Shown here: one piece after another, positions 7,975-32,440 of the stretch | How positions within the stretch are numbered: position 1 is the stretch's first letter | Layout: the number at the start of each line of letters is the position of its first letter | IMG/VR virus record: IMGVR_UViG_3300046314_000532 | Span: 1 to 32,523 of that record | Direction: 5' to 3' (one strand) | Length of the DNA stretch: 32,523 nucleotides | Origin: a virus | The notes under the pieces: generated by a model | What the model saw: the letters and a program-made list of their open reading frames with translations, nothing else | Database searches by the model: none | Told to the model about the DNA's origin: nothing | Program-made: the position numbers and the translations under genes

Positions 7975-8940
7975 ATGGTAATGACGGTACAAGACTACAT
8001 CGATAAATATGGTAACGATCGAGGGGTTGAGAAATTTGAGGCTACCCAACGGCGATTGGCTATACGAGCACAAACTTACGCCACTCACCCGTATACACGA
8101 CTAACCAAGGAGTGGTTAGTGTGGAGATATCCACTAGATGGTTTAACTAGATTTAATAATCATGTGAATAAATCCAGGCAGTCGGAAGAAAATATGATTG
8201 CTAGGTGGGGTGAAGAGTTAGGTAGAAAAAAATGGCAGGACACTGTCGCTAAGAAGAACACTGTCGCTCTAGTCCGAGCAAGTGGTGGAGAGGTTGCGGT
8301 AGATGCAATGCATGCAAAACGAAAAGCTGCTATTGATAAGTATTGGTCCAATCTATCTGAGACAGAACGGCAATACCACATCACGACGAGAGCTGCGAAA
8401 TCATCCGCAACCAAAAAAGAGCGATATGGTAATAAAACAAAGCTCCAAATTTACATCGACAAGCATGGTGAGCTTGGTCACGAATTATACGCCCGTTACC
8501 TCCAGAAAATTTTCAAGTCTATCGGCCATTCGAAGGAAGCTGAAATACTAATCGATCGAGTGTTGTTGGAAAATCCATGGCTATTAAATTACTCGCTGTA
8601 TTACAGAAGTTCCTCCGACAAATCCAAATGTGAGTGGTTTTTGAGTTCTAAGAGTGGTGTTAATTTTTATGATTTCTGTGTACGTGAAGCCAAATCAATT
8701 TTAGAGTATGATGGATTTCGGTGGCACCCAACTAAACAGCAAGCTGAGGAATTTCCTGATGAGCTGATGGAGATAACTGGCATGACATATGCACAAAAAT
8801 ATTCAAAAGACCAAGCTAAAATACAAATGGCTGAAGATCGAGGGTACAAAGTCTTTGTCGTCCGATCTGACTTCACGGAGCAACAAACAGTAGAAGTTCT
8901 GAGCGAATTTATTAACTATACTACAGAAAGATTACAATGA
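7975..8940 (+). CDS. Free-standing Vsr-like (EDxHD-type) homing endonuclease
   Basis: 321 aa. The N-terminal two thirds hold repeated DNA-binding-like modules (YIDKYGNDRGVEKFE, MIARWGEELGRKKWQ, YIDKHGELGHELY), a pattern typical of phage homing endonucleases. The C-terminal catalytic domain has E244-Y-D246-G-F-R-W-H251-P, then Y276-S-K-D279-x-x-K282 and G-Y-K-V-F-V-V, matching the Vsr-related PD-(D/E)xK fold. It shares this plan with the protein at 12041. It sits between the folE block and the QueD-like gene and overlaps the latter by ATGA. The start at 7975 is favoured over 7981 by the AGGAG spacing. The cut site is unknown. Confidence 0.8.
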   Translation: MVMTVQDYIDKYGNDRGVEKFEATQRRLAIRAQTYATHPYTRLTKEWLVWRYPLDGLTRFNNHVNKSRQSEENMIARWGEELGRKKWQDTVAKKNTVALVRASGGEVAVDAMHAKRKAAIDKYWSNLSETERQYHITTRAAKSSATKKERYGNKTKLQIYIDKHGELGHELYARYLQKIFKSIGHSKEAEILIDRVLLENPWLLNYSLYYRSSSDKSKCEWFLSSKSGVNFYDFCVREAKSILEYDGFRWHPTKQQAEEFPDELMEITGMTYAQKYSKDQAKIQMAEDRGYKVFVVRSDFTEQQTVEVLSEFINYTTERLQ

Positions 8941-9542: not shown

Positions 9543-12038
9543 ATGTACATTGCAGCTAGTAGACACTTCGATCACGTAACCATCTGGGAACAACGCCTGA
9601 CACCTAACCACGCCCCGACGATTAAGACGGTCAGAGCGCTATACAATTGCTACATCAAGTGTAGCGACTGGTACTCAGCCCACGCCGAGTTTAGTGATTC
9701 AGTAGAAGAAGGAACGCCTGATGGAGTGTTAAAAAAGTTTCTGGGGCTTGGTACTACTGCAATTGACGAAACTACCAAATATCAATCAATGTTTGGTGAT
9801 GATTTGTATGAACTAGAATTCTCAAATAAGAAGGAGATGTCGAAGTTTCTAGATAGCAAACCAATCGATGTTGAGTTATTTGAGAGTGATATTCCACCTG
9901 AACTAAAGGCGCTGAGTGCGCTGTATTATAAATGTGAATTGCCTCACATCAACACAACATACTATGACATCGAGGTAGATTACCGGCCCAAAAAGTACGA
10001 CGCGGACCATAAAATCAAACTTCGCAATATTGGTTCAGAATCCTTCGAAGCTACAGTTTGGGACCTTCGTGATTATAGGAGTGATCCTGATGTTGAGGTG
10101 TGGGATGAGCCAGTAAAGAAGTGGGTGGCGGTGAAAAATTCATTGTACCTATACGATGGACCAATCGGATTCAGCTCACCACTCGATCCATACGCACCAC
10201 TAAACTCAATTGCGTTCTACCACACCTGGAAAGACGAGTACGTCATCTTTTCTGTCCCGCCTAAGTCCTGGACAGGATGCAATGTCGAAGAACTGTTTGA
10301 CTACAGTTTATTTGAAGATATTGATTCCAAGGTTACAATTGTGTTCTGTAAAAATGAGACTGAGTTGCTAACTCGCTCTGTCGAAGAGATTCAACAATCC
10401 GATTTATTGTCTGGATGGAACTCCTCGCGATTTGATGATCCGTACTTTGCTAAACGAGTGGAGATTGTGTTAGGTAAAGAGTGGTTGCAGATGCTGTCAT
10501 TTCCAAAAGGTAAAGCGCCGTGGTTCCAGACCAAAGAAGTATTCTTCCAAGAGCAATTATTTGTTCAGTTTGATGGCCGCGTCACACTCGACTACATGGA
10601 GTTATTCAAGAAGTTTACAGTCGAGGATCGAGACTCGTGGAACTTGGAAACTGTTTCCCAGGACCATCTCGGCGAGCGATTCAAGAAGTTGGATTACGAA
10701 GGCACTCTGCACCATCTGTACAACAACAACTTTAGTAAGTTTGTGAGGTACAATTGCCGTGACACTGAAATTCTTCGAGAGTTAGATAAGAAGTATAAAT
10801 TTATAAATTTAGCTAATACACTAATTCATGAATCTACGTGCCATTTCAAAAACATTGTGGGTACTGTCCGGTCTGCAGAGATGGCTATCAATAATTACTG
10901 TTGGTACGAGTTAAATGTTCGGGTCCCTGATACAAAACAGCTAGACGAACAAGGGCAAGCTGCCGGTGCATATGTGTTAGTTCCGCAAACTGGTATGCAT
11001 AACTGGATAGTTTGTTATGATATAAATTCTCTATACCCAAATACAATCCGCACCGTCAACATTTCACCCGAGACGTTAATCGGACAATTCAGTGAGTTTG
11101 AGTCTGCGTGGACTGAGATTAATGCTGGGTCAACCGCCCAATTAACATTTAGATGGGAAAAAACTCAGGAAGTAGAAACTAAGTCAGCTAGAATGTGGAA
11201 GGAGCATCTCATTGAACTGAAGTATGCCATTTCAGGGTACGGTACAGTTTTCCGCCAAGATGTTGAAGGCATCATTCCAGCATTACTCGGTAGGTGGTAT
11301 TCGACAAGGAAGCAATTCCAAGCTCAATCCAAACAAGTATTGGGTGCCATAGCAGCAACGACTGATGCTCATCAAGCGGCATTACTGCAGACAGAGTATG
11401 AATTCGCAGATATGACGCAATATGCGATGAAAATTAAGCTCAATTCAGCATACGGTGCATTACTCAATCAAAATTTCCGGTTCTATGATAAGCGGATGGG
11501 GCAATCAGTGACTGCAACAGGTAGGTGCATACTCGGGCACCAAATTCGCAAGGGTTGTGAAATTATAGATGGAGATTACAACATCAACCCAATTACTAGT
11601 GATGAAGACCCACGGGCGATCAACAACGAGATTGCAAGCCCATGTCTGATCTATGGCGACACCGACTCGGTTGTTGGGGGTACCGCGATTTATGTAAACG
11701 GAATTCAAAAAACTATTGCCCAGTTTTACGAGGAGCAGCCAGGTGATTTCATAAAACACGACCCGATTACCAACAATTATGTCAAGCGAGTAGTCGGCTC
11801 AACGAGTGTGGGTTTTGATGGGTCCAACCCAGTAACCAAACCCATTAATTATGTCATGAAACATACTGTCAAAAAACGCATGTTTGAGGTTAGGGTAAAT
11901 GGAGCATCGGTTACTATAACAGCTGATCACTCCATTATAGTCCGCCGCGGCACTGAAATAATAAGCACAACACCGATGAATATAGTAAGGGGGGATAAGT
12001 TGATTAGTGTAAATACCCCCGAATCTGTATCTCCATAA
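9543..12038 (+). CDS. Family B DNA polymerase, N-terminal part, fused to N-half of a split intein
   Basis: 831 aa from the ATG at 9543. The 3'-5' exonuclease motifs are D142-I-E144 (YYDIEVDY), GWNSSRFDDPYF and YNCRDTEIL. Polymerase motif A is D493-x-N-S-L-Y-P-N, motif B is KLNSAYGALLN, and motif C, Y-G-D-T-D, ends at residue 708. There the sequence switches to an intein starting at S709, and the frame stops 123 residues later. The remaining polymerase is encoded at 13122. Replication polymerase of the T4 gp43 type. Activity should need trans-splicing to a ~984-residue product (708 + 276). This is the key replication gene of the window. Confidence 0.93.
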   Translation: MYIAASRHFDHVTIWEQRLTPNHAPTIKTVRALYNCYIKCSDWYSAHAEFSDSVEEGTPDGVLKKFLGLGTTAIDETTKYQSMFGDDLYELEFSNKKEMSKFLDSKPIDVELFESDIPPELKALSALYYKCELPHINTTYYDIEVDYRPKKYDADHKIKLRNIGSESFEATVWDLRDYRSDPDVEVWDEPVKKWVAVKNSLYLYDGPIGFSSPLDPYAPLNSIAFYHTWKDEYVIFSVPPKSWTGCNVEELFDYSLFEDIDSKVTIVFCKNETELLTRSVEEIQQSDLLSGWNSSRFDDPYFAKRVEIVLGKEWLQMLSFPKGKAPWFQTKEVFFQEQLFVQFDGRVTLDYMELFKKFTVEDRDSWNLETVSQDHLGERFKKLDYEGTLHHLYNNNFSKFVRYNCRDTEILRELDKKYKFINLANTLIHESTCHFKNIVGTVRSAEMAINNYCWYELNVRVPDTKQLDEQGQAAGAYVLVPQTGMHNWIVCYDINSLYPNTIRTVNISPETLIGQFSEFESAWTEINAGSTAQLTFRWEKTQEVETKSARMWKEHLIELKYAISGYGTVFRQDVEGIIPALLGRWYSTRKQFQAQSKQVLGAIAATTDAHQAALLQTEYEFADMTQYAMKIKLNSAYGALLNQNFRFYDKRMGQSVTATGRCILGHQIRKGCEIIDGDYNINPITSDEDPRAINNEIASPCLIYGDTDSVVGGTAIYVNGIQKTIAQFYEEQPGDFIKHDPITNNYVKRVVGSTSVGFDGSNPVTKPINYVMKHTVKKRMFEVRVNGASVTITADHSIIVRRGTEIISTTPMNIVRGDKLISVNTPESVSP
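11667..12035 (+). other. Split intein N-half (IntN), in polymerase motif C
   Basis: 123 codons beginning with Ser709 directly after YGDTD. Block A is S-V-V-G-G-T-A-I-Y-V; block B is T793-A-D-H796-S-I-I-V. Both are standard intein splicing motifs. Ser as first residue fits inteins at the pol-c type site (YGDTD/S). No endonuclease domain is fused; the frame ends with a stop. Confidence 0.88.
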
Positions 12039-12040
12039 AC

Positions 12041-13114
12041 ATGCTAACCTTACGAACACTACGCAATAAAGCAACTACATTCAACCTAGACATATCAGAT
12101 ATCGACTTAATTAAATACCAGCAGTTGAGTAAGCAATTGGAAGATAGTGGGAACAAAAATCACCACAAGTTTACGTATAACTTCTTGAAATATGAAATTC
12201 ATAAGATCGAACCTAATATGTTTGATCGGTATTGGAGGATTGTTATTGAGCATAAAGGAGGGTTATCCCACACATATGACCGCTACGTATTATCATACGG
12301 CGCTTACGCAGATGCAAAATGGGCCGCACGTCGGGCATTCATGGCTGAAAAAAATACATTTGTGTATAAATCGCGTACACATGGGTGGACCCTCGATCAG
12401 TTTGATGAATACAACTCAACCAGAAAGCAGACTAAAGAAAGAATGATCGCCCGCCATGGTGAACAAGAGGGGTTGCTTAGATGGACCAGTTATGTCGAGA
12501 AGCAACGAACTGCAGGAGTATCCCTACAGTGGTTCCAGGACAAGCATGGGGTGGATGAGGGGTTGGTAGTATGGGATGCGCTATGTAAATCTAAAGCCCA
12601 CACAATTGACAACTATATCCAACGGTATGGGGATATTGAGCTTGCTACTCAGAAATTGGTTGAGAAGTTCTCAAATCAATTTAACTTTTATTCCGTAAAG
12701 TCGCAAGTATTGTTCGACTTAATAGTCAATGACTTACAGCTTCCGGATGAGCACGTATATTACGCCACAAAAAATACCGAATTTGGGTCATTTGACCCGT
12801 TGGGTAGACGATTTTACAAATATGATTACGTTGATACCAACCACAAGATTTGTATAGAATTCAACGGGGATCACTATCATGGGAATCCAACGCTATATGG
12901 TCCAACCGACTTCCCAAAAGCACTCCGCGGTAGAGGCAGAAAAACCGCATCTCAGTGTTGGGACGCAGACGCTAAAAAACTTGCCCACATACAAAGCCGG
13001 AACTATCGCACTATAGTAGTGTGGGAGCGAGATTTTGATCGTGATCCCAGCCACGTGCTTGACATAATACGTGCAGAATATAAACTACCACCTCGTGATC
13101 CCCCTGAAGAGTAA
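12041..13114 (+). CDS. Vsr-like homing endonuclease located between split-intein halves
   Basis: 357 aa. It starts 2 nt after the IntN stop and ends 7 nt before the IntC start. The central part has the same kind of G-E-x-x-G-x-x-x-W modules as the protein at 7975 (MIARHGEQEGLLRWTSY, DKHGVDEGLVVWD, YIQRYGD). The C-terminal domain has C-I-E273-F-N-G-D277-H-Y-H280-G-N-P, then C-W-D308-A-D310-A-K-K and T-I-V-V-W-E-R-D, matching the Vsr/EDxHD fold. Position and family fit the 'fractured gene' arrangement known from environmental phage sequences, where such an enzyme spreads the split intein. Its target would be an intein-less polymerase gene; this is inferred. Confidence 0.88.
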   Translation: MLTLRTLRNKATTFNLDISDIDLIKYQQLSKQLEDSGNKNHHKFTYNFLKYEIHKIEPNMFDRYWRIVIEHKGGLSHTYDRYVLSYGAYADAKWAARRAFMAEKNTFVYKSRTHGWTLDQFDEYNSTRKQTKERMIARHGEQEGLLRWTSYVEKQRTAGVSLQWFQDKHGVDEGLVVWDALCKSKAHTIDNYIQRYGDIELATQKLVEKFSNQFNFYSVKSQVLFDLIVNDLQLPDEHVYYATKNTEFGSFDPLGRRFYKYDYVDTNHKICIEFNGDHYHGNPTLYGPTDFPKALRGRGRKTASQCWDADAKKLAHIQSRNYRTIVVWERDFDRDPSHVLDIIRAEYKLPPRDPPEE

Positions 13115-13121
13115 AAAATAG

Positions 13122-13244
13122 ATGAATATAGTTGAGACAGATAATTTTGAAATTATTGATTTGGGTCTACAAGAGCTTGATGTGTACGACATTGAGGTTG
13201 ATGGGGTACATAATTTTTTCGCCAACGGTATATTGGTGCACAAC
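13122..13244 (+). other. Split intein C-half (IntC)
   Basis: 41 codons from the start Met to Asn41. Block F/G reads VYDIEVDGVHNFFANG-ILVHN, with penultimate His and terminal Asn that carry out cyclisation, and Ser at +1 as the acceptor nucleophile. Together with IntN the intein is 164 residues, mini-intein size. Confidence 0.9.
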
Positions 13245-14075
13245 AGTTTGTATTGTTCACTCAGTGAGATAATCCCACCCAATGCCAATCCAAACCTTGT
13301 AGTTAAGATTGCTGACAAGATAGGTCATGAGATCAATGCCTCATTCCCCGCGTACAATCGATCAGCATTCTTGGTACAACCCGGGTTCGACCAGCACATT
13401 AAAACTGGTAGAGAATTGGTTGCTGATAAAGGATTTTTCATTCAGAAGAAGCGGTATGTCATCCATGTGATCGACAAAGAAGGCAAGGCCAAGGATGAAC
13501 TGAAGGCTATGGGGGTCGACATGCGCAAGACTACGACCCCCCGCCCCGTCAAAGCATTCCTGCGATCTACGTGTCACAAACTGCTTACAGGAACCCCTGA
13601 TGAAGAGCTAGATGATTTTATCATGGAATATCGTGACGAAATGATTGACGAGATTGATCTAATGGATCTTGGCCTTCCAAAAGGTATCAAGGGAATTGAA
13701 CAGTACACAGCCTCGTTTAGAGACTACCCGACTACCCGACTACCCGGCCATGTATCAGCAGCAATTTTATATAATGATTTTAGACAAGCAGCGGGAGATA
13801 CCGAGTCGCTGTTAATATCGAGTGGTATGAAAATTAAAATTTTCAAGTTGAAGTATGAAATGGAACACGCCGGTCGTATGTTTAAGGCGATTGCTGTCCC
13901 GACAGATGAGGAGATGATCCCTCACTGGTTCAAGGATGAATTCTTTGATAAAATCGATAGGCAACGCCACGTCGGTATGTTGGTTGACAATATGCTGCAT
14001 AATATGTTCGATTCGATTCCCAGACAAGTACCCACTCGCCAAAGTAAGGCGTATGAGTCTGACTTCTCGTTTTGA
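13122..14075 (+). CDS. C-half of split intein fused to C-terminal part of family B DNA polymerase
   Basis: 317 aa. Residues 1-41 are IntC, ending G-I-L-V-H40-N41; S42 is the +1 extein residue. Residues 42-317 continue the polymerase directly after motif C: SLYCSLSEI, then the thumb region with FIQKKRYVIHV (the KKRY motif). Joined across the break, the site reads YGDTD-SLYCSLSEI, the normal motif C context. A GAAGAG sits 15-20 nt upstream of the ATG, so independent translation is likely. It is followed by a late promoter and spanin genes. Confidence 0.93.
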   Translation: MNIVETDNFEIIDLGLQELDVYDIEVDGVHNFFANGILVHNSLYCSLSEIIPPNANPNLVVKIADKIGHEINASFPAYNRSAFLVQPGFDQHIKTGRELVADKGFFIQKKRYVIHVIDKEGKAKDELKAMGVDMRKTTTPRPVKAFLRSTCHKLLTGTPDEELDDFIMEYRDEMIDEIDLMDLGLPKGIKGIEQYTASFRDYPTTRLPGHVSAAILYNDFRQAAGDTESLLISSGMKIKIFKLKYEMEHAGRMFKAIAVPTDEEMIPHWFKDEFFDKIDRQRHVGMLVDNMLHNMFDSIPRQVPTRQSKAYESDFSF

Positions 14076-27796: not shown

Positions 27797-27871
27797 CTGG
27801 CGTTCGTATAATGGATAATACTGGAGATTTCTACTCTTCAAATAGCGGTTCGATTCCGTTACGCCGGACCA
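27797..27871 (+). tRNA. tRNA-Arg (anticodon TCT)
   Basis: Full cloverleaf: acceptor CTGGCGT/ACGCCGG, D arm GTAT/ATAC, anticodon stem GGAGA/TCTTC around TTTCTAC (U33, anticodon TCT, A37), T arm AGCGG-TTCGATT-CCGTT, discriminator A and encoded CCA. Reads AGA codons (and AGG by wobble). Confidence 0.95.
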
Positions 27872-27882
27872 ACTAATATATT

Positions 27883-27957
27883 GAAACGGAAGCTCAACGG
27901 TCGAGCGCCATCCTCATAAGATGGGGGAAGTGGGTTCAACTCCCACCCGTTTCACCA
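27883..27957 (+). tRNA. tRNA-Met or tRNA-Ile2 (anticodon CAT)
   Basis: Perfect acceptor GAAACGG/CCGTTTC, D arm GCTC/GAGC, anticodon stem CCATC/GATGG around CTCATAA (anticodon CAT), T arm GTGGG-TTCAACT-CCCAC, A73 and encoded CCA. A G1-C72 pair and no run of three G-C pairs next to the anticodon loop argue against initiator tRNA. Elongator Met and lysidine-modified Ile2 cannot be told apart here. Confidence 0.95.
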
Positions 27958-32321: not shown

Positions 32322-32440
32322 AAAATATTTTCAAATCAAATTTTATAGCTCATTGGTAGAGCAGTCGGAGCGGCGTTCAATTGCTATCCTATTGGATGGG
32401 AGGTTCAAGTTCTTTCTAAAATTTGATTTGAAAATATTTT
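32322..32440 (+). ncRNA. tRNA-like structured RNA R3 with perfect 24-bp end helix
   Basis: 32322-32345 and 32417-32440 are perfectly complementary over 24 bp. The enclosed 71 nt read like a tRNA body: TA, D arm GCTC-ATTGGTA-GAGC, an AGCGG-CGTTCAA-TTGCT hairpin, a small ATCC-TATT-GGAT variable hairpin and a T arm with loop TTCAAGT. Departures: no U33, five or six extra nt before the anticodon hairpin, G-U-rich T stem. No encoded CCA. Best of the three cloverleaf matches, class II-like. Confidence 0.65.

What the first reader, a model, noticed from the sequence alone, without database searches (positions are those of the whole stretch)
9543..14075. DNA polymerase gene fractured by a split intein with a homing endonuclease gene between the halves
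Family B polymerase stops inside motif C (YGDTD) with a 123-residue IntN (blocks A and B); a Vsr-like endonuclease gene fills 12041-13114; a 41-residue IntC ending HN|S then restarts the polymerase. The catalytic core is thus made only by trans-splicing. 'Fractured genes' of this type are known from environmental phages, but each case, above all one breaking the replicative polymerase, is notable and may give a new fast split intein.
Basis: partly seen in the sequence, partly recalled or inferred. Interest (0 to 1): 0.88.

Follow-up and report, generated by a model that had tools for sequence, protein, structure and literature searches.

The report
Phage polymerase broken by split intein
A phage's DNA-copying enzyme is encoded in two pieces that carry the halves of a self-splicing protein joiner, with a gene for a DNA-cutting selfish enzyme between them; the arrangement is real but already known from other phages and is common in environmental ones.

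Summary
A family B polymerase stops after YGDTD with a 123-residue IntN (11667-12035). An EDxHD/Vsr-type homing endonuclease gene follows (12041-13114), then a 41-residue IntC ending HN|S (13122-13244) that restarts the polymerase; the spliced product would be 984 aa. Splicing residues and the Ser1-specific NX Lys-His pair are present; neither half has cysteine. The nearest solved relative is the Aes123 PolB1 split intein (9HTH), already a protein-splicing tool. Apart from two near-copies, the closest related polymerases lack the insert, so it is an insertion into an intact gene. It is not rare: the layout is annotated in Aeromonas phages, and 202 IMG/VR stretches encode IntN relatives; of the best 80, 65 are split (36 with an EDxHD match of at least 120 residues between the halves) and 11 fused. 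So it is a new member of a known kind, useful mainly as one more cysteine-free split intein. Splicing and homing are inferred. Side findings: the polymerase core around the insert is swapped relative to the sister lineage, without proof that the intein caused it; and a sister genome has a second fractured gene, nrdB, where the window has the empty site.

The parts
9543..11666 (+). N-extein: family B polymerase residues 1-708 (exonuclease domain, motif A DINSLYPN, motif B KIKLNSAYG, motif C up to YGDTD)
   Evidence: motif names recalled
11652..11666 (+). motif C codons YGDTD, directly before the insertion point
11667..12035 (+). IntN, 123 aa, Ser1, NX Lys65-His66, TxxH T85-H88, no Cys (stop 12036-12038)
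12041..13114 (+). EDxHD/Vsr-type homing endonuclease gene, 357 aa; nuclease domain at residues about 216-352, helical region before it
13122..13244 (+). IntC, 41 aa, ending HN, no Cys
13245..14075 (+). C-extein: polymerase residues 709-984 from Ser+1 (stop included)
7975..8940 (+). second, free-standing HEG-like ORF matching the same PHROG (22677), between folE and queD; no match at that place in L014-L017. Related element, not part of the fractured gene

Best explanation
A mobile split intein with its own homing endonuclease sits in catalytic motif C of a phage gp43-like DNA polymerase. Inferred mechanism: three proteins are made from adjoining genes. IntN (net charge +4) and IntC (-9) bind and fold into one intein. 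The bond before Ser1 shifts to an ester, Ser+1 attacks it, Asn41 cyclises, and the 984-residue polymerase with an unbroken YGDTDSLY motif is released. The endonuclease is a separate protein that would cut intein-less polymerase alleles in co-infected cells, so that repair copies the 1.58-kb insert. Shown here: sequence anatomy, homology to an intein proven to splice, predicted fold of the nuclease, intein-less alleles in sister lineages. Inferred: splicing, cleavage and homing in this phage.
For: Intein domain models on both halves. Match to the solved Aes123 PolB1 intein, whose trans-splicing is published (PMC11923092, passages). Class-1 residues and the Lys-His of the NX motif present (motif from PMC10189870, passages). 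Uninterrupted polymerase in L014-L017 (four near-identical contigs), L018 and L272; L271 has no intein at motif C. HEG model from 70 sequences, mean pLDDT 88: VIA-align Z 11.2 to Vsr 1cw0, 10.1 to 1vsr, 9.9 to I-Bth0305I 3r3p over 97 of its 97 residues. Against sister contig L013 the exteins differ at 54 of 2952 nt, IntN and IntC at none, the HEG in two codons, both synonymous. Same layout in cultured phages.
Against: No splicing or cleavage data for this phage. The single-sequence HEG model was poor (pLDDT 37). Foldseek alone gave no match at E <= 0.001, and in VIA-align 3r3p (Z 9.9) is tied with, or within 1 of, other folds such as mitoribosomal proteins 9i05_Xr (9.6) and 9g6k_L9 (9.1) and FASTKD4 9gek (9.0). 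Opposite charge is not special to split forms: split (n=98) and fused (n=10) relatives do not differ (p 0.79). The low divergence of the insert against the sister contig proves no homing, as long identical tracts occur elsewhere in the window. Window record and sister contigs are fragments, so a second intact polymerase is not excluded.
Confidence: 0.93

Rival explanations
1. The halves work as a non-covalent two-subunit polymerase, and the intein pieces no longer splice.
For: Relatives L271, L273, L275, L278, L280 have polymerases in two or three ORFs with a break between motifs A and B and no intein match at that break (L273 and L275 have intein matches further on). Aes123 has a gp43A/gp43B break too. 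So polymerases in pieces exist.
Against: The splicing residues are kept in the window, and both intein halves are unchanged against a contig whose exteins differ by 1.8%, though that low divergence may only reflect a shared recombination tract. The break lies inside motif C with 164 aa of intein at the joint.
Confidence: 0.05
2. The gene is broken by assembly error or is a pseudogene.
For: Window and nearest relatives are metagenomic contigs.
Against: Same anatomy in contigs 3300046336_000121 and 3300048016_000207 and in cultured phages; in the exteins 46 synonymous against 5 other codon changes versus the sister contig.
Confidence: 0.01
3. The endonuclease gene is not tied to the intein but is a chance neighbour.
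For: Some relatives are split without an EDxHD gene (12 of 80 with a gap under 150 nt); in Paride the gap holds another gene annotated 'homing endonuclease'. A second gene of the family stands alone at 7975-8940. The window's nearest relatives by intein (L113, L104) and by HEG (L161, L184) are not the same contigs.
Against: Of 78 loci first fetched by HEG (L182-L259), 77 have an IntN match and 76 of these hold the HEG between the two halves; but they are among the best 80 of 486 for a query built mostly from such genes, so the set is biased. Intein and HEG distances correlate (Mantel r 0.66, 70 pairs, 0 of 2000 permutations as high).
Confidence: 0.05

Closest known systems
Aes123 PolB1 split intein (Aeromonas phage Aes123; PDB 9HTH; parent of CL and CLm)
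   Same: Insertion after DTD and before S in PolB; Ser1/Ser+1; no Cys; two halves with a putative VSR endonuclease gene between
   Different: About 49% identity over the joined intein halves; the polymerase of Aes123 is in three pieces, here in two; at the CLm positions T69/F75/M118 the window has T67, F73 and V121
Fractured genes of Dassa et al. 2009 (paper not held; content recalled, cited in PMC6892783)
   Same: Gene in two ORFs with intein halves and a Vsr-like HEG between (recalled)
   Different: The cases I recall are other genes (gp41, nrd, IMPDH); here the polymerase
Split PolB of Pseudomonas jumbo phages Paride and MIJ3
   Same: Split intein at DTD|S with a nuclease gene between the halves (Paride; MIJ3: PMC6892783, passages)
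   Different: Paride's gap shows no EDxHD match; the MIJ3 paper calls its nuclease HNH
I-Bth0305I and E. coli Vsr (EDxHD homing endonuclease family)
   Same: Predicted fold of the nuclease domain
   Different: 13-14% identity over the aligned part; long helical region before it; target site unknown

Membership tests
class 1 split intein (Ser1 subgroup) | nucleophile at 1, TxxH in block B, HN at the end, Ser/Thr/Cys at +1 | tested here: met
   S1, T85-H88, H40-N41, S+1
class 1 split intein (Ser1 subgroup) | NX motif: Lys/Arg-His, specific to Ser1 inteins (PMC10189870, passages) | tested here: met
   K65-H66; the His is invariant in 7 of 7 aligned IntN. A rough pattern for it matched 80 of 108 relatives
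class 1 split intein (Ser1 subgroup) | two halves on separate ORFs that together make a complete intein | tested here: met
   IntN matches 9hth 6-119, IntC 128-166
class 1 split intein (Ser1 subgroup) | protein trans-splicing | not testable with these tools
   needs expression
Aes123 PolB1-type intein | insertion between D and S of motif C (DTD|S) | tested here: met
   continuous gene at that point in L014-L018
EDxHD / Vsr homing endonuclease | Vsr / I-Bth0305I nuclease fold | tested here: met
   Z 11.2 (1cw0), 10.1 (1vsr), 9.9 (3r3p, 97 of 97 residues) on a model of pLDDT 88. Caveat: 3r3p is tied with mitoribosomal and FASTKD4 chains at 9.0-9.6, and Foldseek alone was not significant
EDxHD / Vsr homing endonuclease | E-D-x-H-D active-site residues (motif recalled; which residues fill it is my assignment) | tested here: met
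   E247, D262, H280, D310 invariant in 7 sequences; in 70 sequences D262 and H280 invariant, D310 at 90% or more, E247 below 90%
EDxHD / Vsr homing endonuclease | cuts the intein-less allele of its host gene | not testable with these tools
   needs a cleavage assay
fractured gene | intact homologue exists and the insert splits one coding sequence cleanly | tested here: met
   L014-L017, L018, L272 continuous across the site; XacN1 polymerase annotated as one CDS
fractured gene | no second intact copy in the genome | tested here: inconclusive
   one polymerase found in the window record and in sister contigs of 49 and 18 kb, all possibly fragments

The most novel reading that the evidence does not exclude
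The element reshapes the enzyme it inhabits. The catalytic core of about 275 residues around the insertion point (motif A to just past motif C) was exchanged between this phage lineage and its sister in the same event that brought in, or cleared out, the intein, so that intein homing replaces the active site of a replicative polymerase by co-conversion.
Probability: 0.2. Interest if true: 0.6.

Novelty: new member of a known kind. Interest (0 to 1): 0.36.

Why it matters
Cysteine-less split inteins are wanted for protein labelling. PMC12707363 (passages) names only two efficient sources, the Aes-derived CL/CLm inteins and LCGC14; PolB16 is a further characterised one (PMC10189870, passages). 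The window's intein has no cysteine at all and is about half identical to Aes123, so it is a candidate for an orthogonal partner. In the survey 16 of 108 non-redundant inteins, the window included, were cysteine-free. The survey also shows split-with-HEG, split-without-HEG, fused and empty states at one site, useful for asking how inteins split and re-fuse.

Tried and rejected
Charge segregation as a mark of natural splitting: split and fused relatives do not differ. Low divergence of the insert against the sister contig as proof of recent homing: it looked striking at first, but the full profile has long clean tracts elsewhere (no difference in bins 2.5-8 kb, one in bins 16.5-25 kb), so it shows nothing special. 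Core swapping as a general effect of the intein: of 4133 polymerase pairs with 60-97% identity in the C part, 3 have a core more than 15 points lower, one in each class (both with intein, both without, mixed), so no link to intein state in general; the window/L014 pair is the most extreme. Direction of the core swap: trees put the window core with L018 and the flanks with L014, but L018 and L271 are mosaic too, so it stays open. Clustering of states on the intein tree: presence of the HEG (22 changes; as low in 110 of 500 shuffles) and fused form (10 changes; 500 of 500) are no more clustered than shuffled labels, which can mean frequent change or a poorly resolved tree. Single-sequence fold of the HEG: useless. 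Rfam: tRNAs only in the window at gathering scores, nothing around the sister's nrdB insert at E <= 0.1. Dassa 2009 and Taylor 2011 are not held. The exact phrase 'intein-containing split DNA polymerase' is in no paper held. One search failed by an error in my script and was rerun.

Rows dropped and limits: the tree of 108 came from 169 rows after leaving out L010, L102 and L103 (near copies of the window), rows without a usable C half and near-duplicates. State frequencies are quoted only from the 80 loci, the best of 202; they contain near-duplicates (for instance L119-L123) and L102/L103. 'With EDxHD gene' means a model match of 120 residues or more between the halves; 'ends HN' was a condition of the script, not a result. 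The tree rests on 159 columns, with 13 of 105 inner branches at 95% support or more. One search left out near copies of the window and of L014, and 189 of its 260 loci had a usable core.
Full report
What is there. The window (an IMG/VR virus record of 32,523 bases) has three adjoining ORFs on the + strand. The first is a family B polymerase that ends in 123 residues beyond YGDTD. The second starts 2 nt after its stop codon and encodes 357 aa. The third starts 7 nt after that with 41 residues ending HN and then continues the polymerase. NCBIfam's intein N- and C-terminal models pass their cut-offs on the two halves; Pfam's intein model does not reach its cut-off. PHROG 262 (DNA polymerase) covers both exteins in register, and PHROG 27191, a polymerase family of 230 positions, matches residues 639-835, across the YGDTD|S joint into IntN, so such halves are already in that library. 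Removal of nt 11667-13244 gives a 984-aa product reading YGDTDSLYCSL. The start at 9543 is preferred to 9501 because L014 and L018 have a Met there.

The intein. IntN and IntC align to the solved Aes123 PolB1 intein 9hth at E 1.7e-24 and 1.6e-11. That intein comes from phages of Aeromonas salmonicida, splices in trans (natively at about 30%, because IntN aggregates), and is the parent of CL and CLm (PMC11923092, passages; PMC12707363, passages and sections 6 and 7). The window has Ser1, TxxH, the NX Lys-His pair described as specific to Ser1 inteins (PMC10189870, passages) and HN|S, with no cysteine in either half. Its halves carry +4 and -9 (Aes123 +8 and -11), but fused relatives show the same polarity, so charge does not mark the split state. 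At the three positions changed in CLm the window keeps T and F and has V for M, so low aggregation cannot be assumed.

The endonuclease. With 69 homologues the model reached mean pLDDT 88. Residues 216-352 match Vsr (1cw0, Z 11.2; 1vsr, Z 10.1) and the I-Bth0305I nuclease domain (3r3p, Z 9.9, 97 of 97 residues, 2.6 A). Mitoribosomal and FASTKD4 chains score 9.0-9.6, so only Vsr stands clearly above the rest, and Foldseek alone gave nothing at E <= 0.001. D262 and H280 are invariant in 70 sequences, D310 at 90% or more, E247 less; E273, G276 and W328 are invariant too. EDxHD as a homing-endonuclease family was read in PMC3943268 (passages). Before the nuclease domain lies a helical region, the likely DNA-binding part (inference).

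Empty sites. Four near-identical contigs L014-L017 (C half 83% identical), L018 (65%) and L272 run straight through the insertion point, and L271 has no intein there. The two IMG/VR contigs found that are closer to the window, L012 and L013, carry the insert. L014-L017 keep the order folE-queD-pol but show neither the intein insert nor the second HEG-like gene at 7975-8940. So the insert is a clean addition to an intact gene.

How common. Among annotated phages 47 records match IntN plus 15 residues of flank (E <= 0.01) and 36 match the HEG (E <= 0.001). Aeromonas Aes123 and Tenacibaculum PTm1 bear intein or VSR labels; Vibrio VPALA shows the same layout without them. Aes516 is split with only a 29-residue HEG match. 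In IMG/VR 202 stretches encode IntN relatives and the best 80 were kept. Of these 80: 36 split with an EDxHD match of 120 residues or more, 7 split with a shorter match, 12 split with a gap under 150 nt, 10 split with another gap, 11 fused in one ORF, 4 with no C half found. 73 sit at DTD|S and 7 at GD|TDS, two residues upstream. All 76 with both halves have Ser at 1, and 6 are cysteine-free. On a tree of 108 non-redundant inteins the 10 fused forms need 10 changes (at least 5 forced by well-supported branches) and presence of the HEG 22 (at least 7); neither is more clustered than shuffled labels, so the states change often or the tree is too weak to show otherwise, and direction is unknown. 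Intein and HEG distances correlate (Mantel r 0.66, 70 pairs, 0 of 2000 permutations as high), though the window's own nearest neighbours differ for the two.

Mosaic core. In 40-residue windows the spliced window polymerase is 71-100% identical to L014 up to about residue 480 and 90-97% from about 763, but 24-78% in between. By segment: N part 89%, core 55%, C part 83%. In the core the window groups with L018 (support 0.96), in the flanks with L014 (0.999 and 1.0). Among 4133 pairs of polymerases this pair has by far the lowest core for its flanks (57% against 92-93%). The insertion point lies inside the swapped piece, about 225 residues from its left and 52 from its right edge as judged by eye. 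That fits co-conversion during homing, but equally an unrelated swap: a piece of this size would cover the site by chance in roughly a quarter of placements (my estimate), other genes differ between window and L014 far more than their neighbours (dcd 32%), and core swaps are not linked to intein state in general.

A second fractured gene next door. Sister contig 3300046336_000121 differs from the window at 345 of 32,364 aligned bases, and its nrdB is interrupted: a Cys1 IntN-like stretch follows ILDEK, then an ORF with a GIY-YIG domain (PF01541, 28.0 bits, cut-off 22.6), then an IntC-like end SGN|CHTDAM. The IntN matches the AceL NrdHF-1-1 intein 6zgq at E 3.6e-18. A 38-aa query over the IntC found nothing, NCBIfam's intein models did not fire, and the last IMG/VR scan found this one contig only, with a single-protein query that reaches close relatives alone. 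The window and contig 3300048016_000207 have the empty site, reading ILDEKVHADSM. The codons right after the insert differ between filled and empty alleles (CHTDA against VHADS) while the surroundings are nearly identical, as co-conversion of the flank would give. So such an insert is present in one and absent in another of two close genomes.

Verdict. It is a new member of a known kind (PolB1-type split intein with an EDxHD endonuclease), not a rare curiosity. Splicing and homing in this phage remain inferred.

Noticed in passing
L299:1300-2949 (sister contig of the window); empty site in the window between 670 and 671: nrdB of the sister genome is fractured by a second, unrelated Cys1 split-intein-like insert holding a GIY-YIG endonuclease ORF; the window and L301 have the empty site, and the codons just after it differ between filled and empty alleles.
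   Followed up: partly
window 10995-11666 with 13245-13400, against L014: Polymerase core (motif A to just past motif C) swapped between window and sister lineage while the flanks are about 92-93% identical.
   Followed up: partly
7975-8940: Second HEG-like ORF matching PHROG 22677 between folE and queD; no match in L014-L017, where folE and queD are neighbours.
   Followed up: partly
L168, L169, L176, L178-L181, L207, L214 and others: Relatives of the intein inserted at GD|TDS, two residues upstream of DTD|S, mostly with Thr+1; the site needs 4 changes on the tree.
   Followed up: partly
L271, L273, L275, L278, L280: Related polymerases broken between motifs A and B with no intein match at that break, like the gp43A/gp43B break annotated in Aes123.
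   Followed up: no
1605-2129: About 4.2 copies of a 126-nt tandem repeat inside ORF 1347-2756; the alignment to the sister contig breaks here, so copy number may vary.
   Followed up: no
L021: A 174-kb contig with a HEG relative and, about 5 kb on, an IntC-like end before what by eye looks like a ribonucleotide reductase large chain: perhaps another fractured gene.
   Followed up: no
27797-27957: tRNA-Arg(tct) and tRNA-Met(cat) genes; a third weak tRNA match at 32339-32424 just at the Rfam threshold.
   Followed up: no
L300 about 10427-11222 (window about 28424): Sister contig carries about 0.8 kb more, with two small ORFs, near the tRNA region.
   Followed up: no
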